Shown here: positions 368-37,176 of the stretch, one piece after another
How positions within the stretch are numbered: position 1 is the first letter of the stretch
Layout of the letters: every line of letters starts with the position of its first letter
Assembly (NCBI RefSeq): GCF_029955155.1
Contig: NZ_JAPNOZ010000011.1
Location: forward strand, 124,001 to 188,000
Length of the DNA: 64,000 nucleotides
Direction: 5' to 3'
DNA from: Psychrobacillus sp. NEAU-3TGS
GTDB lineage: Bacteria > Bacillota > Bacilli > Bacillales_A > Planococcaceae
Notes under the pieces: generated by a model
Database searches by the model: none
Told to the model about the DNA's origin: nothing
What the model saw: the letters and a program-made list of their open reading frames with translations, nothing else
Program-made: the position numbers and the translations under genes

Positions 368-934
368 TTAATTTAAATTTATTAATCCTGATTTAGATCC
401 CCAATTACCTAACTTCACTTGTAAGTCTAATCCAGTTAACCCGCTCGGAACTTCAAATACTATATTTCCTGTAAGTGATAGGCCAGGGTTGATGCCCTCA
501 TAAACAAAATATTTATCGTCCGCTACTAAGATTCTAGACGGTGAGTATTTTGCATCATTTTCAGCAATGAGTTTGAAGAACGAAGAATCTGTCTGAATCA
601 TTTCGACGTCATCATTTTTCACTGTAACATTTACAATTAAAAATACAGCCCCCTCTGCTTCAGGAGAATATTTAAACATACCATTACCAGCTGTTATTTG
701 TTTAGTTTCTTCTATCGAGTTAACTTTAAAAACTACTTTTCCTACAGATAAATCATCACCGATGCTAATATTCTTAACTTCTGCAGTTGTCTCGATATTT
801 TCCGCAAATTTTTCTTTTTCAGAGCTATCACCATTTTTATTTTGAGAGTCATCACCTAGCAGTGCGCCAATTATTATTAGTAATATGAATAGCACTATTA
901 TTCCAAGACAACCAATTTTAAAAAACTTTTTCAC
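368..934 (-). CDS. Membrane-anchored DUF4352-like extracellular protein (phage cargo)
   Basis: 188 residues. Residues 1-28 form a signal anchor or signal peptide (MKKFFKIGCLGIIVLF...), then a short charged linker rich in D, N, S, E, K, then from about residue 50 a beta-rich domain that resembles DUF4352 (immunoglobulin-like, MPT63-like fold). Phage and plasmid copies of this fold are secreted or surface-tethered; the ligand is not known. The gene sits between the tail chaperone and the tape measure, where phages normally have nothing, and has its own terminator, so I infer a lysogen-expressed moron, perhaps for surface modification or superinfection exclusion. Function is not established. Confidence 0.6.
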   Translation of the reverse strand: MKKFFKIGCLGIIVLFILLIIIGALLGDDSQNKNGDSSEKEKFAENIETTAEVKNISIGDDLSVGKVVFKVNSIEETKQITAGNGMFKYSPEAEGAVFLIVNVTVKNDDVEMIQTDSSFFKLIAENDAKYSPSRILVADDKYFVYEGINPGLSLTGNIVFEVPSGLTGLDLQVKLGNWGSKSGLINLN

Positions 935-13517: not shown

Positions 13518-14246
13518 TTATAAATTTTCGATCGTAAGTGTAATACGATTAGTTTTCATATAATTTTTGAGTCGCAGATAGTTTTCGTAGTATAAGTAGA
13601 GAGGCTCCGAGATAGCAACACCTTGCATACCAATTTTCTGACCTTTAACCATAGCTGAACCATCAAAACCTCCTAATCGCTTCATTGATTCCATAATTTC
13701 ATGATACGTTGATTTTTTTATATCATCTAAAATCTCTACAAACTCAATCTCTAAATTAACCGGCAACTTATATATCTCTTCAATATACTCATTCACTCTG
13801 GAAATGTGGTGCTCCAGATATTCGCCGTATGTTGCATTTCTATCCAAATCCATATAATACATTGACGAAATATCATTCATCAAATCATAACTTTCGACAT
13901 TTTTAATAAATAACTCTTTTTCAAAGTCATTAAAGTTTAACTCTTCCTTTGTTTTACTGTTTGTTAAACCAATGAATTGGTCTTTCATATGGTTTAACAA
14001 TCTACTCAACGGTACAGCTAAACGGTTATACCTTTTCTTCTTTTCTTGGTTTTGTGGTATCCATATGTCTATAATGTAAAATATGAAAGCTGCTATATAA
14101 CTAATGCAAAGGCCAAATATCACCTCTCCAGTTTCTTCGCCGAAATCCCATTTCTCAGGTGTTTGTCCCCAAAGATATTTAATTATAAAAATGCAAACTA
14201 AGCTGACAACTAAAATAAAAGTTAAAATTAACCTTGTTTTCTTCAT
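13518..14246 (-). CDS. Two-TM membrane protein of unknown function (phage cargo)
   Basis: 242 residues. Two membrane segments (about 7-25 and 44-62), then a long helical cytoplasmic part with many aromatic and charged residues and a final KTNRITLTIENL. No domain recognised. It lies between the sigma factor gene and terS, ends at its own terminator and starts after a 165-base gap, so it is probably a separately expressed insert. Membrane-plus-helical architectures are common in exclusion and abortive-infection proteins, but that is inference only. Confidence 0.65.
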   Translation of the reverse strand: MKKTRLILTFILVVSLVCIFIIKYLWGQTPEKWDFGEETGEVIFGLCISYIAAFIFYIIDIWIPQNQEKKKRYNRLAVPLSRLLNHMKDQFIGLTNSKTKEELNFNDFEKELFIKNVESYDLMNDISSMYYMDLDRNATYGEYLEHHISRVNEYIEEIYKLPVNLEIEFVEILDDIKKSTYHEIMESMKRLGGFDGSAMVKGQKIGMQGVAISEPLYLYYENYLRLKNYMKTNRITLTIENL

Positions 14247-14411
14247 TACATAAACCTCCCCCTGACAATATTACCAGAATAAGAGGTTATTACCAAGGCA
14301 ATTACTCGTATGCAACGGGGCTAGTAGGAGGCGTTCATCCCACGAACGCACCCCCTCTTTTTCTCCCCCTCATAAGTAATTACTTCGTAAGACAATCGTA
14401 AGACAAGAATA

Positions 14412-14885
14412 TTATGCAATTCTTTCCTTCACCTTTTCTTTCGCTCTTTTGATATACATTTGGACTGTTCCTTTGCTAAGTCCAATCTCTTCTGCAATCT
14501 TACTCATACTTAACCCTTGTGAAACATGTAGGATATAGCAATGTCTTTCTCTATGAGATAACGCTGCCAGTATATCCGCAAGAATAATCTTCTCTTCTCT
14601 CGTCATATATAATTGCTTTGGTTCTGACTCAAGTTGCTCGGTTATATCTGGTATGCATTCCATACTGCTGATATATTGGCGCTGATAAACCGCTTTTTTA
14701 TCTACCCCTCGATATGTACCTGGTTGACGTCCTGTGGTCATCCAATCGATGGAGTACGTCATGCTATCAATCATGCTGTTAATCTGTTTAATATCCAGTG
14801 CATCAATCGACTTTTCTTTTAATGTATTCAATTCCTTTTTGCCCTCGTTATATTCATGTATCAATCTATCTGCCCAGTTATCCAT
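14412..14885 (-). CDS. xpf: Xpf-like sigma factor, late-gene activator
   Basis: 157 residues from ATG 14885 (GGGGGAT upstream). The C-terminal 60 residues are a sigma-70 region 4: LSHRERHCYILHVSQGLSMSKIAEEIGLSKGTVQMYIKRAKEKVKE. PBSX Xpf has the same role and position, switching on the late operon that begins with the terminase genes. An upstream reading-frame extension lacks a ribosome-binding site. The N-terminal half is helical and probably contacts RNA polymerase. Confidence 0.85.
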   Translation of the reverse strand: MDNWADRLIHEYNEGKKELNTLKEKSIDALDIKQINSMIDSMTYSIDWMTTGRQPGTYRGVDKKAVYQRQYISSMECIPDITEQLESEPKQLYMTREEKIILADILAALSHRERHCYILHVSQGLSMSKIAEEIGLSKGTVQMYIKRAKEKVKERIA

Positions 14886-14896
14886 ATTTAATCCCC

Positions 14897-15091
14897 CTAT
14901 CGTCTTTTGACCGCACCGCGTACTCTTTTGTAGGTATCTCGATTGCACCCCATCAATTCTTCAATTTCCCTTCGAGTTAACATTTCTTTTCTTTTGTAGC
15001 TTGTCTTTATACTCGGATTAACTAACTCGCCCCTAGTAGCCTGTTTTACCCCTTTTTCGATAAGCTCTGTTTGAAGCGTTCTCATGCTCAT
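14897..15091 (-). CDS. Small basic phage protein before xpf
   Basis: 64 residues, very basic, with a probable helix-turn-helix in the second half (LTRREIEELMGCNRDTYKRVRG). It ends 11 bases before xpf. The family is common in Bacillus prophages at this spot and is unnamed; a regulatory role in the late switch is plausible. Confidence 0.65.
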   Translation of the reverse strand: MSMRTLQTELIEKGVKQATRGELVNPSIKTSYKRKEMLTRREIEELMGCNRDTYKRVRGAVKRR

Positions 15092-15112
15092 CTCTCCCTT
15101 ATGGATGAAATA

Positions 15113-15165
15113 AAAAAGAGGACAACAAATGACACAGCTAATGCTGCAATCAAGTGTTGTCCTCT
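15113..15165 (-). terminator. Terminator copy 2 of a repeated cassette end
   Basis: On the minus strand AGAGGACAACA...TGTTGTCCTCT (11-bp arms, about 31 bases between, with a smaller internal hairpin) is followed by a T run. It closely matches the element at 17291-17341: both share GACAACAAATGACACA, TGCTG and TGTTGTCCTC on the plus strand. Confidence 0.75.
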
Positions 15166-15191
15166 GGTTGTCCAGGGGGACTTTTTATTTA

Positions 15192-17104
15192 TTATTTTAT
15201 CTCTTCTAAATAATGTATGTCATCATTCCAAACAAATTCTTCAAGTAATAAATGATTGTCAAAAAAATTCTTATTTTGTAACTGATCATTAAACTTTTCG
15301 CCCTTTTCTGAATACATTACATTATAAAATAACATCATTAATTCAAACGATGATAATTGCGCTCTTAAAATCCCTCTGAATTCCTTCTTCAACTCGTGAC
15401 TAATCAAGTCTGATTCATTAATATACTTAACTATTCTATATAAATTACGATAATAATGACCAATTAAATATTCATAACTTAAGTAAAATTTTGTGTAAAT
15501 ATTTATTTTTTTATCTTTCCAAGTTTTGTTATCCGATATTATAAAATCATCACTTAAACATACATGAATATCTGATATGAATGTTTTTTCCGGGAAATTT
15601 AATATTGCATCACAATAAGAAGTATTCTCTTGTTCGAGATCTGTTATAATTTGTTCAGCTTCAAACAATATGTTGATGTAATAATTATTTTCAGGGTATA
15701 TACCATCATCAATTTTATCAATTATTTCTTCGTATTCTTCCTTTGTATACCCTTCAAATGAAGACATCTGATATACTTTTTCTTTTAAGCTTTCTTTAAG
15801 AATTCTATCATGAGCTTTATGAAAAACCTCTTCCACTTCTTGTTCAGTAAAATATTCCTTAAATTTATATTCTCTGTATCCCTTTATCCCTTCCTTTTTG
15901 AATTTATAAAACAATTCCATTATTAGCTCTCTTCCAGATACATCATTCAATTTCATATTTGCTAATATATTATGGTGAAGATTAACCATATTGAAAAAGT
16001 ACTCTCAAACTGTTGTCTCTTCATAGTTTGGTTTGTAATTCCTGTTTCTTTTCTAGCTTCTTCGGCTTGACTAACAGATGCTTTGGTTTGTTTAACCAGT
16101 TCTTTTATGCTTTGTTGACTTATTTTTATCTCCTTACGTTGCATAATGATAGTTGCTAATAGTAGGAAGACACTAGAAGCAGTTAAAAATGTAACTGTTG
16201 TACCTCCAATAAAATCTCCAATCCCACCCAAATCAGCTATAGTTTTATAGTTAACTATTAGATTCTTATAATGATTTTTAATAATAAATGGAACCATAAT
16301 AGCCGTTAATATCAAGACAATTCCTAGAAAACTGAATAAATTTATTAATTTTCTTTGAAACCAGTCTTCATCTTCATCTTCATCTTCATCTTTTTTAAAA
16401 TTCGATACGCTTTCTTTATCTATATTTTTTGTATCTTCAAAAAGAAGATACGCATAAGGGGTAATTGCAGCTACAAATCCCCCAAAAATATTAACATTAA
16501 ACAACTTTATTATCTCCAATAGATCTGATTGAGATAGTCTATTAATATTCTCAAATTCCAGCAATCCTATAATTAAAGGTAAAAAACCGAAAACCACTAG
16601 AAAAACAGTGAGATATGCAGTTACTATCTTTTTGTTTGTTACGTAATACAATATCACATTATCCCACTTATAATAGTTACCGGCTGATATTAACTTTTTA
16701 AGACCTTTAATCGCTAAGGAATAAAAGAAATAGGATATTATCAATATTAATATAATACTAAAAAACAGATTATCTACGTATGTAGTATAAATCTCATTAT
16801 TGAATGAGTTAAATATTTTATTTACATTTTCGTTTAAATCAAATATTGGAATAAGATGCTCAACTGTAAAACTTGCTAGAAGGAAAGAAGCTATTCCTAT
16901 AAAAAAAAGAACTGCCGTCAATATGAATTGTTTTAGTCTCAATACAAGTGTATTCGAATTAACAAACACTAATAACAATGAAATTAACGAAAATAAAAGG
17001 TAAAAAACTATATCAAACTGTATGTCCATCATTAAAGATAAACAGTATATGATTCCTATAAACATTATGTTTAATATTACAAATAATATTGCTTTTTCTT
17101 TCAA
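15192..17104 (-). pseudogene. AbiC-like putative phage abortive infection protein, split by a frameshift
   Basis: Two overlapping frames read as one gene. The first (TTG 17104 onward, about 380 residues) has six or more membrane segments, an acidic DEDEDEDEDW stretch and a final helix ending in NQTMKRQQFESTF. The second frame (to 15192) continues with NMVNLHHNILANMKL and a helical domain. QQFE.TFF..L..HH is the junction expected in putative phage abortive infection (AbiC-like) proteins. Adding one T to the T5 run at 15994-15998 (minus strand) restores a 637-residue product. As sequenced it is broken; the pattern elsewhere in the window suggests a base-calling error. The predicted role is membrane-linked abortive infection against other phages. 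Confidence 0.7.
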
Positions 17105-17165
17105 AACTCTTCTCCCTCTTCCCTCCGCATTCGCTTCACTTTCCCTTATACGATACAATCTTATG
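17105..17165 (-). pseudogene. Remnant of an xtrA 3' end
   Basis: The bases match the last 57 bases of the intact xtrA-like gene at 19437-19495: with one extra base they read KIVSYKGKVKRMRREEGEEF and a stop. The stop TGA overlaps the TTG start of the AbiC-like gene (TTTTGA). No start codon is seen upstream, so this is a fragment. It marks the upstream edge of the second cargo cassette. Confidence 0.7.
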
Positions 17166-17238
17166 CTCTCTATCTAAAAATGTCCTCTTTGTCAGCTATA
17201 TTTTTATAAGTCTAATGACACACCATCTATATAGTTCT

Positions 17239-17267
17239 ATTATACCAATAAAAGTTTCCTAGTACAA
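17239..17267 (-). promoter_or_regulatory. Sigma-A-type promoter of the AbiC-like cassette
   Basis: On the minus strand TTGTAC (17267-17262), a 17-base spacer and TATAAT (17244-17239). It lies 135 bases upstream of the AbiC-like start and just downstream of the preceding cassette's terminator, so the cassette can be expressed alone in the lysogen. Confidence 0.65.
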
Positions 17268-17290
17268 ACATTATTTAACTTTTTTAAACA

Positions 17291-17341
17291 AAAAAGGACA
17301 ACAAATGACACAACGGTTGCTGTAATCAAATGTTGTCCTCC
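17291..17341 (-). terminator. Terminator copy 1 of a repeated cassette end
   Basis: On the minus strand GGACAACA and TGTTGTCC arms flank about 31 bases and are followed by TTTTTTG. It is homologous to the element at 15113-15165, though the genes before the two copies are unrelated. Confidence 0.75.
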
Positions 17342-17360
17342 AGTTGGCTGACAGTACTAA

Positions 17361-18548
17361 TTAATTTGTTTTAAAACCTAATTCTTTTACTGAAAATTTT
17401 TTATTTTCGTTCTGTCGATGTCTCTCAAAAAAATCATTTTCAATTCCAGTTAATAAAGTAAGAAAGCTTTGATCTACCTTGAATTCGTCCATTATTTCTG
17501 ACACAGTATACAATCCCTTATCAAAGAGTAACTGTAAAATACTTTTTACTTTTGTCGGACGACTGATAGGAATATCTCTATCTAAAGGCTCCACTACTTT
17601 ATAACCATTTTGATTGATTTTAATATAGAAATAACGGTATTGTTGATAATCAATGATATTTAATTTAAATGCACGCATTGCAATAGCTTGTAAAGAAACT
17701 TGCCATTTTTGCTTTATATCGATATAGGCATCAGGATTAGATCTTTTAACAATACTACTGCAATCTTTTCTAAATTGAACTTCTGGCAAAAGGAATGCAG
17801 AAGCAAAACTGTTAGCCTCATCCTCAATACTTTTATAAGTTTTTTTATCTTGCATAGTAAATTCAACTTTGTAATGAATAAGTAAATGTCCTAATTCATG
17901 AGCTAAATCAAAATTTCTTCTAACTTCTGATTTTTTTATAGTCCCTAACATGATATAGGGTCTTTCTTCTTTGCTCCACAAACTATATGCATCAATTGTC
18001 TCACCGATTTCTTTTTCAAATACAAAGATACCAGCTTTCTCTAACAAAAACAGTAAATTTTGATTAGAATTGTTATTAAGTCCTATCTTTTCTCTTGCCA
18101 TACTAGCTATATAATCAATTTGTACATTTCTATCCATATCATCATTATTTTTTAAAAAAGTAATTGCTTCATTTCTCAATTCTAAAATTATATTTTTTGG
18201 ATAGTTAATTCTTGTTTCAATCTTCCTTATAAATGCATCGATAAATCTTACATGCATCGATTCACTTTGAGATTTATTTAATGAATTAATTGTTTCAGAA
18301 CGATATGCAATATTTTCAACCTGTATATTGTCCATACCCACACCATTCAACAAATCGTGGTTGTAAAAATATGTCGATTTCACTCGAAAGATGGTTTTCA
18401 ATTTATTTACTACTTCCAATTTCGGAGACATATATCCATTTTCATACTGCCAAATAGCTTGTTCAGTTACACCAATTTTTTCTGCTAACTGATTCCTACT
18501 CAAGTCATTTAGTATCCGTATGTTAGTCAAACTTTTGCCCATAAACAC
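17361..18548 (-). CDS. XRE-family HTH protein with ImmA/IrrE-type metallopeptidase domain
   Basis: 395 residues. Residues 1-60 are an XRE helix-turn-helix (LTNIRILNDLSRNQLAEKIGVTEQAIWQYENG). About residues 150-300 form an M78 (ImmA/IrrE) domain with zinc motif LAHELGHLLIH and a later E in DEANSFASAFLLP. The C-terminal 90 residues are helical. GTG 18548 has AAGGAGG 8 bases upstream; ATG 18542 is the alternative. Such proteins cut repressors or partners after a damage or infection cue. It follows the 257-residue gene by 24 bases. Two-gene pairs with an HTH-M78 protein occur as toxin-antitoxin-like defence systems (RosmerTA is one I recall), but membership is not shown here. Confidence 0.8.
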   Translation of the reverse strand: MFMGKSLTNIRILNDLSRNQLAEKIGVTEQAIWQYENGYMSPKLEVVNKLKTIFRVKSTYFYNHDLLNGVGMDNIQVENIAYRSETINSLNKSQSESMHVRFIDAFIRKIETRINYPKNIILELRNEAITFLKNNDDMDRNVQIDYIASMAREKIGLNNNSNQNLLFLLEKAGIFVFEKEIGETIDAYSLWSKEERPYIMLGTIKKSEVRRNFDLAHELGHLLIHYKVEFTMQDKKTYKSIEDEANSFASAFLLPEVQFRKDCSSIVKRSNPDAYIDIKQKWQVSLQAIAMRAFKLNIIDYQQYRYFYIKINQNGYKVVEPLDRDIPISRPTKVKSILQLLFDKGLYTVSEIMDEFKVDQSFLTLLTGIENDFFERHRQNENKKFSVKELGFKTN

Positions 18549-18572
18549 AGGCTATACCTCCTTATTTAAACA

Positions 18573-19340
18573 TTAACTCTCTTGACCCTTTTCTTCAGAG
18601 TCATCATTTAAGCCAATATCAAATTTAAATGCATTATAATCATCATTAGTCTCTACACTATTTGACAACGCATCCTTTAATTCTTCATCAATATCTATAT
18701 CATGTGAAGGATTAACATATTTTATTAAATCATCAATCAAATAGGCTTTATTGTTTTTGGGATTTGGCATAAGAAGAGAAATTTTTGATATTAACTGGTT
18801 TTCATCAATTGCATATGTGACAATATAGAATCGAGTGAATTCAGACTCTATACTCGCAATTGCAATATCGTCTGCTTCACTAAGGCGAAGGTCTTCAAGT
18901 AACTCCAGCTGTACAGATCCATTTGATTCTTGAGTTTTGATATTTCCAAAATCAATACCCTCGTTAATTCCCATTAGTTTCTCCATATAGGACATTTTCG
19001 ATTTTCGTGTCTTTCCATTAGCATCTTTTCCTTGATCAACTTGCTCTTCATCAAAATATCTGGCATTTTTAACAATGAAAAGAATTTTTTCATCATGGTG
19101 TTTGAATTGTAAATATTGCCAAGTTAATCCCGCTTTAGCTAGTTTACTTTGCACACCATATGATTCACAAGACGTTGCTACTTGATCATCTATATGGTTC
19201 CCCTTAACCCATGCATAAGCTCCGCTAACTCTCATTGTACGAGACTTTTCTCTTCTAACATTAAGATATTCACGATATCCTTCCATTAATCCATCGACTA
19301 TTTTTTGATTTAATACTTCCGCTAATTTGTAATCATTCAT
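18573..19340 (-). CDS. DUF5986-like partner protein of the HTH-peptidase gene
   Basis: 255 residues from ATG 19340 (GGGGGTG upstream; ATG 19346 is too close to it). Soluble, with a first half resembling DUF5986 (LNVRREKSRTMRVSGAYAWVKGNHIDDQV, FKHHDEKILFIVKNARYFDE) and a strongly acidic C-terminus. It leads a two-gene unit with the HTH-M78 protein and has an inverted repeat just upstream. I infer substrate or toxin-partner status from this arrangement; no catalytic motif was seen. Confidence 0.6.
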   Translation of the reverse strand: MNDYKLAEVLNQKIVDGLMEGYREYLNVRREKSRTMRVSGAYAWVKGNHIDDQVATSCESYGVQSKLAKAGLTWQYLQFKHHDEKILFIVKNARYFDEEQVDQGKDANGKTRKSKMSYMEKLMGINEGIDFGNIKTQESNGSVQLELLEDLRLSEADDIAIASIESEFTRFYIVTYAIDENQLISKISLLMPNPKNNKAYLIDDLIKYVNPSHDIDIDEELKDALSNSVETNDDYNAFKFDIGLNDDSEEKGQES

Positions 19341-19353
19341 TAACATACACCCC

Positions 19354-19401
19354 CATATTTTCTTTTAAACATAATAAATCTATTTTATTAAAGAAAATAT
19401 G
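19354..19401. promoter_or_regulatory. Inverted repeat upstream of the HTH-peptidase pair
   Basis: Perfect 12-bp arms CATATTTTCTTT (19354-19365) and AAAGAAAATATG (19390-19401), 24 bases apart, lie between xtrA and the start of the two-gene unit. The likely use is autoregulation by the unit's XRE protein. Confidence 0.6.
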
Positions 19402-19436
19402 ATTTGTATACCATTTTTTTAAAGTTTGTATGATTT

Positions 19437-19637
19437 TTAGAATTCTTCCCCCTCTTCCCTTCTCATCCGTTTGACTTTCCCTTGATGAGTTACAATCTTA
19501 TACTCCCCATGAGGTGGTAGCTCTCTTAGCTTTACTTTTCCTTCACAAATAACGATTACACAACTTCTAGGTATATCCAAAATGTCAACTGTCAGCTGCA
19601 TTGTACTTGTATCTATTCTTAAATCTTCTTTATCCAC
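19437..19637 (-). CDS. xtrA: XtrA-like phage protein
   Basis: 66 residues. The text DTSTMQLTVDILDIPRSCVIVICEGKVKL... and GEYKIVTHQGKVKRM resembles PBSX XtrA, which in PBSX sits just before xpf. AAGGAGGGG precedes; GTG 19637 gives a better spacing than TTG 19640. In this prophage XtrA and Xpf are 4.5 kb apart because two cargo cassettes have been inserted between them. Confidence 0.75.
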   Translation of the reverse strand: MDKEDLRIDTSTMQLTVDILDIPRSCVIVICEGKVKLRELPPHGEYKIVTHQGKVKRMRREEGEEF

Positions 19638-19699
19638 CAAGACCCCTCCTTCATGTTATAATTGAGGTGTGCGAGACAGGAGGAGTCCTGTCTTTTTTG

Positions 19700-19915
19700 T
19701 TATCCAAAAATACTGTGTTTCCTACGTTTTATCTTCCCTATTTCAGCCCTATCCAAAGCCAGTAATAACACTTCTATAGGCTTTCGGTTCATCTTTTTTG
19801 CTATTTCTTTGATGTCATAACCTTTATTCCAGTAGACTACAATTTCATCCAATTCAGCAGGTTTATAAACCACATTCACTTTGTGCCCCTCGTCCTCAAA
19901 CAAATAGTAATTCAT
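19700..19915 (-). CDS. Small HTH-type phage protein
   Basis: 71 residues with a helix-turn-helix-like segment (NKGYDIKEIAKKMNRKPIEVLLLALDRA) and a basic tail. It follows ssb by 12 bases on the same strand. Homologues are common in Bacillus prophages near xtrA. A terminator-like GC hairpin (GAGACAGGAGGAGTCCTGTCTTTTT near 19670-19697) lies just downstream. Confidence 0.6.
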   Translation of the reverse strand: MNYYLFEDEGHKVNVVYKPAELDEIVVYWNKGYDIKEIAKKMNRKPIEVLLLALDRAEIGKIKRRKHSIFG

Positions 19916-19927
19916 GCTATCACCTCA

Positions 19928-20419
19928 CTAGAAAGGAAGATCGTCGTCTGTCACTTCGACAGGACCGCCGCTATTGGCAAACGGATCATCATCCACTCTT
20001 GTATAATTTTGTTGCGTTGTTTGTGGTTGCTGATATTCAGCATGGCTTCGTTGATGGTCGTTATTTTGACTTCTAGTACCGTTATTTTGCGATGCTTGTC
20101 CATTCTTCGGTTCAAGGAACTGCACGCTATCTGCGACAACATCAGTCGTATAAACACGCTTACCATCTTGCCCCTCGTAACTGCCTGTTTGGATTCTTCC
20201 CTCAATACCTGCTAAACTACCTTTCTTCAAGAAGTTTGCTGTGTTCTCAGCTTGTTTTCTCCATACCACAATATTTATAAAATCAGCATCAGGTTGACCT
20301 TCTGACTTAAACGTTCTGTTTACTGCTAATGTAAATCTGACCATTGCAACTCCTGAAGGTGTATACCTAAGCTCAGGATCTTTCGTAAGCCTTCCAACTA
20401 ATACGACGCGGTTAATCAT
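19928..20419 (-). CDS. ssb: Single-stranded DNA-binding protein
   Basis: 163 residues. The OB fold is clear: [59 protein letters not shown] Gln/Asn-rich linker leads to the acidic tip DDDLPF that recruits repair and replication proteins. It is the phage's own copy, at the end of the replication block. Confidence 0.95.
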
Positions 20420-20423
20420 TACT

Positions 20424-20615
20424 TCACTTCGCTTTCTTTTTCAAATTCTGATTGCCTCTTGTATGCGATGGGTGCTGCACAACATATTGGTGTTCGTTAA
20501 ACCGAATGAGCGTAGCAACCCCCTTCTTTTCTCTTAAAATTTCTACAATGTTAGGACGAATTAATCTTAAAAACTGAATTTCCTGTTTCTCTGTATACTT
20601 TGAAGTAATAATCAT
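20424..20615 (-). CDS. Small basic phage protein, unknown
   Basis: 63 residues, basic, no recognisable domain ([23 protein letters not shown]). It lies four bases upstream of ssb, so it is probably in the same transcript. Confidence 0.5.
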
Positions 20616-22091: not shown

Positions 22092-23081
22092 TTACATTTC
22101 ATGAATCAATTCCAGCTGCACTTCACTTAATCGTTTTTCAGCAATCTTTATATATTCTGGATTTAACTCTATACCAACAAAATTACGTCCATGTTTTAGT
22201 GAAACCACCCCTGTTGTTCCTGAACCAAAGAATGGATCCAATACCACTCCATTAATTGGGCATCCAGCTAATACACATGGCTCAATTAATTCTTGCGGAA
22301 ACGTAGCAAAGTGTGCTTCCTTCAATGGTTTAGTGGAAACAGTCCATACTGATCGTTTATTCCTTTTATCTCGAATAGCTCGGAATGCCTCTTTTCCATA
22401 CTTGCCATCGAATGAACCACGAACCTTGCTTTCTCTTCTTTGCTTTTGTGGTTGTCCAAACGCCCCTTGAGAACCTCTAATATCTTGTGTTCCGTAAATG
22501 GCCTGTTCTTTAATAATCTCATGATCATAAAAATACTTAGGTGACTTGGATAACAGAAAGATATATTCATCGGATTTGGTTGGCCGATCAGTTACACTCT
22601 CAGGCATAGCATTAGGCTTATTCCAAATGATATCTTGTCTTAAATACCAACCATCTTGCTGGAGTGCAAAAGCAACTCTCCAAGGTAAACCAATTAAATC
22701 TTTAGGCTTCAAACCATTCATAATCTTAGGTAATTTTACAATCCCCTTAAATTGTCCTTCGCTTTGCATATGGTTATTTCCGGGATTACCTTTACCATCT
22801 GCATTTCTGCCTTTTCCACTTCCTGCATAAGCATCGCCAAGGTTCAACCAAAGTGTGCCATCGTCTCGAAGGACTCTTTTAACTTGGCGAAACACTTCCA
22901 CCAATGCTTGTACATATTCATCAACCGAACTTTCCAATCCAATCTGTTCACCCATTCCATAGTCACGAAGTCCCCAGTATGGAGGACTTGTAACAACCGC
23001 ATTTACACTTTCGTCTGTAAATGTTTTCAATACATCAAGACAATGGCCTTGATAGATTTTATTAAGTTCCATTGTCGTCAT
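22092..23081 (-). CDS. Orphan DNA methyltransferase (N4-C/N6-A type)
   Basis: 329 residues. Motif IV TSPPYWGLRDYG (residues 31-42) precedes motif I DPFFGSGTTGVVSLKHGRNFVGIEL (about 282-306), the beta-class order. SPPY favours N4-cytosine, but N6-adenine is possible. No restriction endonuclease gene is nearby, so this is likely a phage-protective enzyme against host restriction. The target site cannot be read from sequence. Confidence 0.88.
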   Translation of the reverse strand: MTTMELNKIYQGHCLDVLKTFTDESVNAVVTSPPYWGLRDYGMGEQIGLESSVDEYVQALVEVFRQVKRVLRDDGTLWLNLGDAYAGSGKGRNADGKGNPGNNHMQSEGQFKGIVKLPKIMNGLKPKDLIGLPWRVAFALQQDGWYLRQDIIWNKPNAMPESVTDRPTKSDEYIFLLSKSPKYFYDHEIIKEQAIYGTQDIRGSQGAFGQPQKQRRESKVRGSFDGKYGKEAFRAIRDKRNKRSVWTVSTKPLKEAHFATFPQELIEPCVLAGCPINGVVLDPFFGSGTTGVVSLKHGRNFVGIELNPEYIKIAEKRLSEVQLELIHEM

Positions 23082-35937: not shown

Positions 35938-36015
35938 CATAATGGTGTAAACGCTCACCTAAAGAGACCTATTATCCTGAAAATCTGTGTTAGCGTGATA
36001 GTAAGGAGTGATTTT

Positions 36016-37176
36016 ATGTATTGTCGCGAATTAATAAAGGGGAAAAAATGGGTTTGTGTTGCTGATGGTCCGCGTGATCCAGCTACCGGAAGAAGAAAAC
36101 AAATATCTAGGCGAGGTAAAAGCCAGAAAGAAGCAAAAGCAAAGGTATTAGTTGCTATTGAAGAAATCGACCACAATCTTATATATGACCCTAATATTAC
36201 TTTTAAAGACTTTGCTTATCAATGGTTTGAACAGTACCTACTTAAAGGTCAAAAAGAATCGACATATGCAATAAGGGAATATTGTATCGAAGTCCTGATA
36301 AAGTATATAGGAAGTCTGAAAATGAAAAGCGTCACATTAACGCATTATCAAAAAATCTTAAATGATTTATTTAAAAAGGAACAATCCTTGAATACGATGA
36401 AAATGATCCACACTACTGCGAGGATGATTTTTAGATATGCCACTGAAATAAATTTGATAAAATCCAATCCAACGCTAAACGCGGAAATCCCTAAAAAACA
36501 AAAGACTGTAGAAGATATTGAAAATGATAACGTCTCAGAAAAATATCTTGAGACAGAAGAATTATGGGAGTTGTTAAATGCTGCGGACAAGTATTATAAC
36601 TACGTGAATGTGATTGCAATTTATACAATCGCCTTTTCCGGAATGCGCCCCGGCGAAGCAATCGCGTTAAAAGAAAAAGATGTATTGTTCGAATCGAATC
36701 AATTAAGTATTACCAAGACGATTTATAGAAAGAAAAATTTAAAGAAAGTATTTAAGCTTACTCCTCCCAAAAATACAACTAGCATAAGGTTAATCGATAT
36801 GGAAGAAAGAATAATGAATATGATAAAAAATGTGCTGGAATACAAAGAAAAACATCATTTCACTAAAAGTGATCATGTTTTTTCCACACCAGATGGTTAT
36901 CCTATTAAAGAAGAGTACTTAGCAAAGGCATTAAATGAAATTCGTGCAACAACTCCAATCAAGAAAAAATTGTATCCTTACATTTTAAGGCACACACATA
37001 TTAGCATGTTAGCAGAAAAAGGATTCAGTCTTCCATTCATCATGAAACAAGTAGGTCATAAAAATTCTGATACCACCACTCAAATTTATATGCATGTAAC
37101 AAAAGGTATGCGAGAACAAGTTCAAGAAAAAGTTGGAGAACTATTTAACGATTTAATGGATTTTAAGAAGAAATAA
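36016..37176 (+). CDS. int: Tyrosine-type phage integrase
   Basis: 386 residues from ATG 36016 (AAGGAGTG upstream). Arm-binding N-terminus (Arm-DNA-bind_4-like: RELIKGKKWVCVADGPRDPATGRRKQ), SAM-like core-binding domain, and catalytic domain with R in SGMRPGEAIAL, HxxR in YILRHTHIS, H in VGHKNSDTT and Tyr in QIYMHVT. Catalyses integration and, with an excisionase, excision. It ends 90 bases from the comGG remnant, next to the presumed attachment site. Confidence 0.93.
   Translation: MYCRELIKGKKWVCVADGPRDPATGRRKQISRRGKSQKEAKAKVLVAIEEIDHNLIYDPNITFKDFAYQWFEQYLLKGQKESTYAIREYCIEVLIKYIGSLKMKSVTLTHYQKILNDLFKKEQSLNTMKMIHTTARMIFRYATEINLIKSNPTLNAEIPKKQKTVEDIENDNVSEKYLETEELWELLNAADKYYNYVNVIAIYTIAFSGMRPGEAIALKEKDVLFESNQLSITKTIYRKKNLKKVFKLTPPKNTTSIRLIDMEERIMNMIKNVLEYKEKHHFTKSDHVFSTPDGYPIKEEYLAKALNEIRATTPIKKKLYPYILRHTHISMLAEKGFSLPFIMKQVGHKNSDTTTQIYMHVTKGMREQVQEKVGELFNDLMDFKKK

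What the first reader, a model, noticed from the sequence alone, without database searches (positions are those of the whole stretch)
15113..19500. Two-cassette cargo hotspot between xtrA and xpf
In PBSX, xtrA lies directly before xpf. Here two cassettes are stacked: each begins right after an xtrA 3' end (intact at 19437-19495, remnant at 17105-17165) and ends at a terminator with strongly similar sequence (17291-17341, 15113-15165). The genes inside are unrelated: an HTH-M78 pair and an AbiC-like protein. This looks like homologous recombination swapping and stacking cargo between conserved flanks.
Basis: partly seen in the sequence, partly recalled or inferred. Interest (0 to 1): 0.75.

Follow-up and report, generated by a model that had tools for sequence, protein, structure and literature searches.

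The report
Plug-in gene slot in prophages
Dormant viruses of Bacillus-like bacteria carry a ready-made slot, with what looks like its own start signal on one side and its own stop and transcription terminator on the other, into which unrelated genes (some of them anti-virus defences) are swapped and sometimes stacked in a row.

Summary
In detail: xtrA tail and terminator are each duplicated (82-84%) around RosmerTA (cassette 1) and a putAbiC-type gene split into two frames (cassette 2). It recurs. Of 119 distinct xtrA loci, 110 carry the same hairpin element downstream; 27 are stacked (up to five elements) and eight are empty, one of them the host's second prophage. Flanks 88-100% identical hold unrelated cargo, and related cassettes sit in different slots. 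New points: (1) in 76 of 84 occupied loci whose xtrA ends in TGA, the longest frame behind it is the one beginning at a TTG overlapping that stop (48 of 52 cargo clusters), so xtrA's 3' end probably supplies ribosome-binding site and start; (2) the right-hand element often supplies the stop codon and is a covarying two-hairpin terminator; (3) eroded xtrA copies inside stacks keep this SD-TTG end best. Cargo is rich in membrane proteins; most is unknown. Swapping and stacking are well supported. That homologous recombination does it is inferred; stack junctions need an unequal or illegitimate step. New variant of a known kind (prophage hotspot).

The parts
19437..19640 (-). xtrA, intact; left flank of the slot. 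Its last ~27 nt are purine-rich, Shine-Dalgarno-like. Here it ends in TAA, so it offers no overlapping TTG start to cassette 1
   Evidence: PF17356 E 7e-15; sequence
18573..19346 (-). RmrT, predicted toxin of RosmerTA (cassette 1)
   Evidence: PADLOC PDLC03931 E 3e-80
17361..18548 (-). RmrA, HTH + peptidase M78 antitoxin of RosmerTA (cassette 1)
   Evidence: PADLOC PDLC03945 E 6e-160; PF06114, PF01381
17278..17372 (-). internal copy of the slot's terminal element, with U-tract; its small upstream hairpin and alternative pairing are weaker
   Evidence: R1 E 9.5e-24; fold z -6.6
17239..17244 (-). promoter-like TATAAT inside a junction segment shared by five Psychrobacillus-type arrays
   Evidence: alignment of 5 junctions; the consensus scan did not list it
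17101..17170 (-). xtrA 3' remnant that begins cassette 2; keeps the purine-rich tract and TTTTGA
   Evidence: profile E 9e-12
15962..17104 (-). N-terminal part of the putAbiC-type gene; a TTG overlapping the remnant's TGA is the likely start
   Evidence: ORF, phrog_8999 E 2e-11, sequence
15192..15989 (-). C-terminal part of the same gene in another frame, with putAbiC domain (gene split)
   Evidence: PF16872 E 1.7e-14; PADLOC AbiP/AbiC; phrog_8999 E 2e-13
15102..15196 (-). terminal element: small hairpin CUGG-ACAA-CCAG followed by terminator hairpin and U-tract; right flank of the slot
   Evidence: R1 E 6.5e-25 (training row); fold z -7.6; covariation
14897..15091 (-). small conserved ORF (64 aa) upstream of xpf; right-hand landmark
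   Evidence: phrog_23181/20406/3928; found downstream in many relatives
14412..14948 (-). xpf, sigma-like regulator; right-hand landmark
   Evidence: phrog_1190 E 5e-36; PF08281

Best explanation
The xtrA-xpf interval is a conserved, self-contained expression slot of PBSX-like prophages. SHOWN BY SEQUENCE: the empty form is xtrA - about 35 nt - hairpin element - xpf. Cargo sits between xtrA's stop and the element with sharp borders; it differs between phages whose flanks are near-identical, and units [xtrA tail - cargo - element] are stacked in tandem up to five. INFERRED, LIKELY: the 3' end of xtrA serves cargo as ribosome-binding site plus TTG start (overlapping its own TGA), and the element supplies in many cases a stop codon, and a terminator that insulates xpf and the late genes. 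Any reading frame inserted between them would thus be expressed. Some cargo does not use this start: RosmerTA lies behind a TAA-ending xtrA in the window and behind an unused TGA in L048, so presumably has its own promoter. INFERRED: existing cassettes are exchanged by homologous recombination in the conserved flanks, while stacks are founded by rarer unequal or illegitimate joins that duplicate xtrA; the extra xtrA copies erode except for the SD-TTG end that the next cassette needs. In the window, cassette 1 is a RosmerTA defence; cassette 2, a membrane putAbiC-type gene, starts at the remnant's TTG behind a promoter-like junction, but is split and probably inactive now.
For: Element in 110 of 119 distinct xtrA loci (profile iterated on these loci). 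94 of the 118 strongest listed element hits in 261 genomes lie <9 kb downstream of XtrA, same strand; of the other 24, 20 were fetched and 18 show xtrA remains or o64/xpf, one of them weakly. Empty sites L102, L104-L109 and the more divergent L190. Frame rule: 76 of 84 TGA-ending occupied loci, 72 of them open >=90 codons; 48 of 52 cargo clusters; TAA/TAG 5 of 15, Fisher p 6e-5. Cargo stop at -8/-9 of GCCAAC, i.e. a TAG/TAA abutting GTCC or a variant of it, in 48 of 134 cassettes (128 with a qualifying ORF). Flank pairs L032/L067 (right 250 nt 100%, xtrA 88%), L014/L047, L142/L143, L178/L185 with unrelated cargo. 134 cassettes in 66 clusters; related cassettes in different slots, e.g. L059 slot 1 of 3 and L073 slot 2 of 2. 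L161/L178 and L072/L033: same cassette single and stacked. Remnants keep the last 27 nt better than the 48 before (0.84 vs 0.71, 30 remnants, Wilcoxon p 4e-6; 57 intact tails 0.90 vs 0.85). T run >=5 in 106 of 110 terminal but 16 of 33 internal elements. Covariation of both hairpins. Cultured phage AP45 carries the same arrangement.
Against: Synonymous-site test: the SD strength of xtrA's end is no better than its amino acids dictate (mean energy -10.33 vs -10.22, rank 0.55, 98 genes), so nothing shows that xtrA was shaped at DNA level for this job. TTG use is inferred from frame; no N-terminus has been sequenced. By a looser measure (>=6 T in 8) terminal and internal elements do not differ (110 of 110 vs 31 of 33), though that measure also counts the T-rich 3' arm. 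No locus proves which recombination pathway acted, and the stack junctions lack visible homology. 12 of 84 TGA loci lack a >=90-codon frame at the TTG; RosmerTA behind TGA in L048 shows that a TGA end does not imply coupling. If TTG-coupled cargo has no promoter of its own it would be expressed with the phage operon, which fits poorly with defence in the dormant state. Most cargo has no known function (84 proteins: 23 Pfam families at E<=1e-3), so 'defence slot' is only partly documented.
Confidence: 0.75

Rival explanations
1. Integron-like site-specific cassette system: the hairpin element (as folded single strand or as duplex) or xtrA's end is a recombination site for an unidentified recombinase, which inserts and stacks cassettes.
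For: Each cassette is one or a few ORFs with a conserved structured hairpin at its 3' end, in tandem arrays of up to five; borders are sharp; in two comparisons stacking broke in the hairpin's 3' arm, after GTT or GTTG.
Against: The only integrase-like gene among the ten window ORFs scanned is the ordinary phage integrase at 35995-37176. Junctions have several different breakpoints: full xtrA copies in L054 and L152 (G127), from about profile position 29-30 in L067, L172, L177, later in others; gaps from an overlap of 2 up to 28, 113, or 120-136 nt.
Confidence: 0.1
2. Ordinary moron turnover: accessory genes land at a tolerated site between early and late genes by illegitimate recombination, and the shared frame and terminator are relics of a few founding insertions.
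For: Cargo is small, mostly single-gene and diverse (93 of 133 cassettes with exactly one ORF >=60 aa); hotspots between two conserved phage genes are known (PMC9122126, passages).
Against: The TTG frame rule holds across cargo without detectable similarity (48 of 52 clusters), and borders coincide with phage-owned start and stop signals; a few founding insertions would not easily give 66 clusters with the same two borders.
Confidence: 0.13
3. The element is chiefly a regulated gate (attenuator) for late gene expression: ribosomes ending at its TAG, or a factor binding the small hairpin, decide between antiterminator and terminator ahead of xpf; cargo merely accumulates in front of it.
For: Small hairpin changes on both sides at three pairs with no breaks (CG41/UA11, CG31/UA21, AU32/GC20); an 8-pair antiterminator that would exclude the terminator is formable in 95.9% of cells; the window RNA cut before the 3' arm folds that way, full length folds as terminator.
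Against: The four outer pairs that make the two structures exclusive hardly vary, so covariation does not test them; of five measures two (pairs with both-side change, pair types) do not exceed shuffles, and the sequences are related, so the changes may be few events. The window's internal copy forms the alternative poorly (z -0.8). No expression data.
Confidence: 0.3

Closest known systems
Prophage and satellite antiviral hotspots (P2-like phages, P4-like satellites; Rousset et al. 2022, PMC9122126; passages seen)
   Same: Small locus of high turnover between two conserved phage genes, carrying anti-phage systems
   Different: Here the flanks themselves appear to give start, stop and terminator, and units are stacked in tandem with eroded copies of the left-flank gene
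Integron gene cassettes (features recalled, no call)
   Same: Tandem arrays of mostly single ORFs, each closed by a structured hairpin
   Different: No integron integrase among the window ORFs scanned; several junction types; flanks are phage gene parts; some cargo seems to have its own promoter
RosmerTA (PADLOC RmrT/RmrA; described in passages of PMC10440598)
   Same: Toxin plus HTH-M78 (ImmA-like) antitoxin pair
   Different: Nothing noted beyond its place in the slot
putAbiC, PF16872 abortive-infection-type proteins
   Same: C-terminal domain match above cut-off
   Different: The window's copy is split into two frames
Intrinsic terminators and transcription attenuators
   Same: G+C-rich stem, U-tract; an alternative upstream pairing is possible
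   Different: Sequence and structure conserved in 12 family-level groups of a class-level genome sample and, where tested, tied to one prophage locus

Membership tests
Prophage anti-phage hotspot | High turnover of small cargo between two conserved phage genes | tested here: met
Prophage anti-phage hotspot | Cargo includes known defence systems | tested here: met
   By profile only: RosmerTA (window; one pair among the 84 cargo proteins, in L048 by tblastn), ShosT (L058), AbiLi/AbiLii (L038), mREase_IV in 3 of 84 members
Prophage anti-phage hotspot | Cargo protects against phages in assays | not testable with these tools
RosmerTA | RmrA with HTH and M78 peptidase domain | tested here: met
   PDLC03945 E 6e-160; PF01381, PF06114
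RosmerTA | Adjacent RmrT partner | tested here: met
   PDLC03931 E 3e-80
RosmerTA | Toxicity neutralised by partner; phage defence | not testable with these tools
   -
putAbiC (PF16872) | Domain above curated cut-off | tested here: met
   54.5 bits vs 22
putAbiC (PF16872) | One intact reading frame | tested here: not met
   Two overlapping ORFs; relative L040:8022-8924 matches both parts in one frame
Integron | Integron integrase near the array | tested here: not met
   Ten window ORFs scanned; only the phage integrase at 35995-37176. Arrays of other loci were not scanned for it
Integron | One crossover point at each cassette end | tested here: not met
   Several junction types
Integron | attC core boxes | not tested
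   Only looked at by eye
Intrinsic terminator | Stable stem followed by U-tract | tested here: met
   106 of 110 terminal elements have a T run >=5; folds
Attenuator | Conserved mutually exclusive alternative hairpin | tested here: inconclusive
   Three of the inner 4 pairs covary; outer 4 pairs nearly invariant

The most novel reading that the evidence does not exclude
A previously undescribed gene-capture system of temperate Bacillales phages: a phage-owned 'expression vector' (xtrA SD-TTG start on the left, stop plus switchable terminator on the right) that captures start-less frames, with the hairpin element acting in recombination, so that phages build integron-like arrays of largely unknown, often membrane-anchored anti-competitor genes.
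Probability: 0.15. Interest if true: 0.92.

Novelty: new variant of a known kind. Interest (0 to 1): 0.72.

Why it matters
It turns an anecdote into a searchable rule: model R1 plus an xtrA tail marks the slot in many Bacillales prophages, and whatever lies inside is a candidate phage-competition gene. 84 cargo proteins scanned gave only 23 Pfam families at E<=1e-3, so most are unknown and worth testing. It predicts systematic misannotation: a cargo start at a TTG overlapping xtrA's stop is easily missed, as in the record of phage AP45, whose annotated gp26 start omits a hydrophobic N-terminal stretch. It also offers a tractable case for how phages acquire, express and stack accessory genes without disturbing late transcription.

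Tried and rejected
Rfam: no match for 14000-20600. DNA-level search of phage and plasmid records with the 6-kb block: no record with one place over 80% of the query; the rows listed (40 of 98 and 30 of 81) matched ssb or the RmrT/RmrA region. Selection on xtrA's end for SD strength at synonymous sites: negative. The TATAAT at 17239-17244 was not listed by the consensus scan, which found about as many sites as in shuffles (30 vs 27.4); I keep it as 'promoter-like' for its conservation in five junctions only. The terminator scan missed the main hairpins, plausibly because it allows only loops of 3-8. A peptide encoded in the element was considered by eye and dropped: the small frames do not look conserved. 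The attC reading was considered; no integron integrase seen and variable junctions. L052 was first counted as empty; it is an xtrA fused to cargo and was dropped from the empty class. The fold of L161 was of the wrong strand and is disregarded. Alignment A1 is of unrelated proteins, used only to scan them in one go: 84 of 92 listed ORFs were given (left out: the four window proteins, scanned; three antisense ORFs; one L052 ORF); L078 (11 ORFs) was left out before that. Not every XtrA match was fetched: 58 family stretches and 9 genus stretches were; matches new were not. (PMC11087260): one passage, a reference, nothing on this slot.
Full report
What is in the window. On the - strand the order is ssb, a 71-aa ORF, xtrA (19437-19640), RmrT (18573-19346), RmrA (17361-18548), element 1 (17278-17372), a junction of about 120 nt, an xtrA remnant (17101-17170), a putAbiC-type gene in two overlapping frames (15962-17104 and 15192-15989), element 2 (15102-15196), a 64-aa ORF and xpf.

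Relatives. XtrA searches gave 37 viral and 42 genome loci, 13 matches in 9 of 19 same-genus genomes and matches in 66 of 250 family genomes; 67 stretches from these genomes were fetched, not all matches. After removing duplicates, 119 distinct loci remained. With a profile iterated on these same loci, 110 of 119 carry the element downstream of xtrA: one element in 85, two in 20, three in 3, four in 1, five in 1, none in 9; some of the nine end at contig borders. 27 of 119 are stacked by the criterion of at least two elements or a secondary xtrA tail. Secondary tails are not chance: in 1.09 Mb of 61 loci there are 79 plus-strand hits at E<1e-3, the loci's own intact tails included, and 0 minus-strand hits.

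Empty sites. In L102 and L104-L109 the element follows xtrA's stop by 34-53 nt and xpf comes directly after; L190 is a more divergent eighth case in which no xpf was detected. L104 is the second PBSX-like prophage of the window's own genome. So the terminator is xtrA's native neighbour and cargo is inserted in front of it.

Borders. Where two loci share flanks but not cargo, similarity stops at xtrA's TTTTGA and resumes at or next to (T)AGTCC: L014/L047 (xtrA 94%, right 250 nt 93%), L142/L143 (96%, 89%), L032/L067 (88%, 100%), L178/L185 (89%, 97%), all with no detectable cargo similarity. Overall 289 of 4950 pairs among 100 loci share any cargo similarity.

The start. In 99 occupied loci with intact xtrA, 84 end in TGA, and in 76 of these the longest frame behind xtrA is the one whose TTG overlaps the stop; in 72 it is open for at least 90 codons. 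With TAA or TAG it is 5 of 15. Counting each first-slot cargo cluster once, 48 of 52 obey. The seven closely similar empty sites end in TAA (5), TAG (1) or TGA (1). The upstream stretch is purine-rich and Shine-Dalgarno-like, but no stronger than the encoded amino acids require, so this looks like use of a pre-existing feature. Eroded secondary copies keep their last 27 nt better than the preceding 48 (0.84 vs 0.71, 30 remnants, p 4e-6; intact tails 0.90 vs 0.85). In the window, cassette 2 begins with such a TTG while cassette 1 (RosmerTA) lies behind a TAA-ending xtrA. The rule is not absolute: RosmerTA of L048 lies behind a TGA-ending xtrA whose TTG frame closes after 17 codons.

The stop and the element. 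In 48 of 134 cassettes (128 with a qualifying frame) the cargo stop is the TAG/TAA that abuts GTCC, or a variant of it, at the element's edge; the empty sites carry the same or a very similar sequence there. In 52 aligned elements RNAalifold finds a 4-bp hairpin CNNG-CCAA-CNNG directly before the terminator stem, with three pairs that change on both sides and never break. An 8-pair extension that would exclude the terminator is formable in 95.9% of cells (slid controls 32-49%), with 52 both-side cells against 18.3 in shuffles; but two of the five measures (pairs with both-side change, pair types) do not exceed shuffles, its outer pairs hardly vary, and the sequences are related. The terminator itself is paired in 96.7% of cells with 84 both-side cells against 30.9 in shuffles; its pair types (23 vs 21.3) barely exceed them. 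RNA of the window cut before the 3' arm folds as the alternative, full length as terminator. A regulated gate is therefore possible, not shown.

Specificity and range. Among 261 genomes (all listed ones of one family), the 118 strongest listed hits of model R1 include 94 within 9 kb downstream of an XtrA match. Twenty of the 24 others were fetched; 18 show an xtrA remnant or tail, or o64/xpf (L257 only weakly), and L256 and L258 do not. In a class-level sample 24 of 398 genomes have a hit at E<=1e-8, in 12 family-level groups. Phage AP45 of Aeribacillus has xtrA ending in TTTTGA, a frame open from that TTG with a hydrophobic N-terminus, a TAA, and the element; its annotated gp26 starts further in.

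Cassettes as units. 134 cassettes form 66 similarity clusters, 51 of them single; the largest cluster (37) is probably inflated by membrane segments. Related cassettes occur in different slots: L059 slot 1 of 3 and L073 slot 2 of 2 (67% over 437 aa), L059 slot 3 and L177 slot 1, L172 slot 1 and L189 slot 2, L041 slot 2 and the single L138. RosmerTA of the window is single in L048 of Virgibacillus alimentarius (74% over 395 aa). L161 and L178, and L072 and L033, show one cassette single and stacked; each pair matches into the hairpin's 3' arm and then diverges.

How stacks arise. Junctions differ: in many Sporosarcina arrays the hairpin lacks its end and U-tract and is followed within 5-27 nt by an eroded xtrA; in the window, L012, L039, L041 and L110 an intact or nearly intact terminator is followed by about 120-136 nt with a conserved TATAATRNNACTAT-like block; L067, L172 and L177 keep xtrA from about profile position 29-30; L054 and L152 (G127) keep two whole xtrA copies. 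A T run of at least 5 is present in 106 of 110 terminal but 16 of 33 internal elements; a looser measure, which also counts the T-rich 3' arm, shows no difference (110 of 110, 31 of 33). I read this as several founding unequal or illegitimate joins, then erosion, with cargo exchanged around inherited junctions. The window phage has SSB, a RusA-like resolvase and a PDDEXK (DUF3799) protein that could serve recombination; this is inference.

Cargo. 108 of 175 cargo ORFs of at least 100 aa have a hydrophobic membrane-like segment, against 34 of 267 ORFs downstream of xpf in the same loci (simple hydropathy). Profiles name RosmerTA, ShosT (L058), AbiL (L038), type IV restriction-like proteins, putAbiC, DUF1643, DUF5677, HNH, RloB and others; in the batches scanned singly, 14 of 20 cargo proteins had no PADLOC match (thresholds 0.01 and 0.001). 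So the slot holds some recognised defence genes and mostly unknown ones.

Literature. Searches of the held library for xtrA with xpf and prophage (1 paper), PBSX with xtrA (2), xtrA with phage (168, first 20 listed), hotspot and cassette terms (15, 4 and 13 papers) and integron-like with prophage terms (0) listed no description of this slot that I could recognise from titles and starts of abstracts; I opened none of those listings' papers for it except passages of PMC11087260 (nothing on it). Most subscription papers are not in the library. Hotspots of anti-phage systems between conserved phage genes are known (PMC9122126, passages), and RosmerTA is described in passages of PMC10440598. That xtrA lies directly before xpf in PBSX is recalled; here it was seen only in the empty relatives.

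Verdict. Novelty is in the expression-slot anatomy and the stacking, not in the existence of a prophage hotspot.

Noticed in passing
window 13518-14246 (-): A 242-aa ORF between xpf and the terminase genes with a weak SLATT_6/2TM match (E 0.011); possibly a second cargo site.
   Followed up: no
L104 (G000:C2:298000-313000): The same genome carries a second PBSX-like prophage whose xtrA-xpf slot is empty.
   Followed up: partly
L270:4686-5243 (phage AP45, NC_048651): Annotated start of gp26 (L270:4764) omits an in-frame hydrophobic N-terminus that begins at a TTG overlapping xtrA's stop.
   Followed up: partly
L149 (G024:C1:385700-395000): Longest array seen: five elements, with two eroded xtrA copies.
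   Followed up: partly
L256 and L258: Strong element hits without detectable xtrA, o64 or xpf nearby; L256 has two elements.
   Followed up: no
window 22092-23081 (-): N6/N4 DNA methylase gene (PF01555) upstream of ssb in the same orientation.
   Followed up: no
window 633-724 (+): Weak match of model R1 (22.4 bits) outside the slot, probably chance.
   Followed up: no
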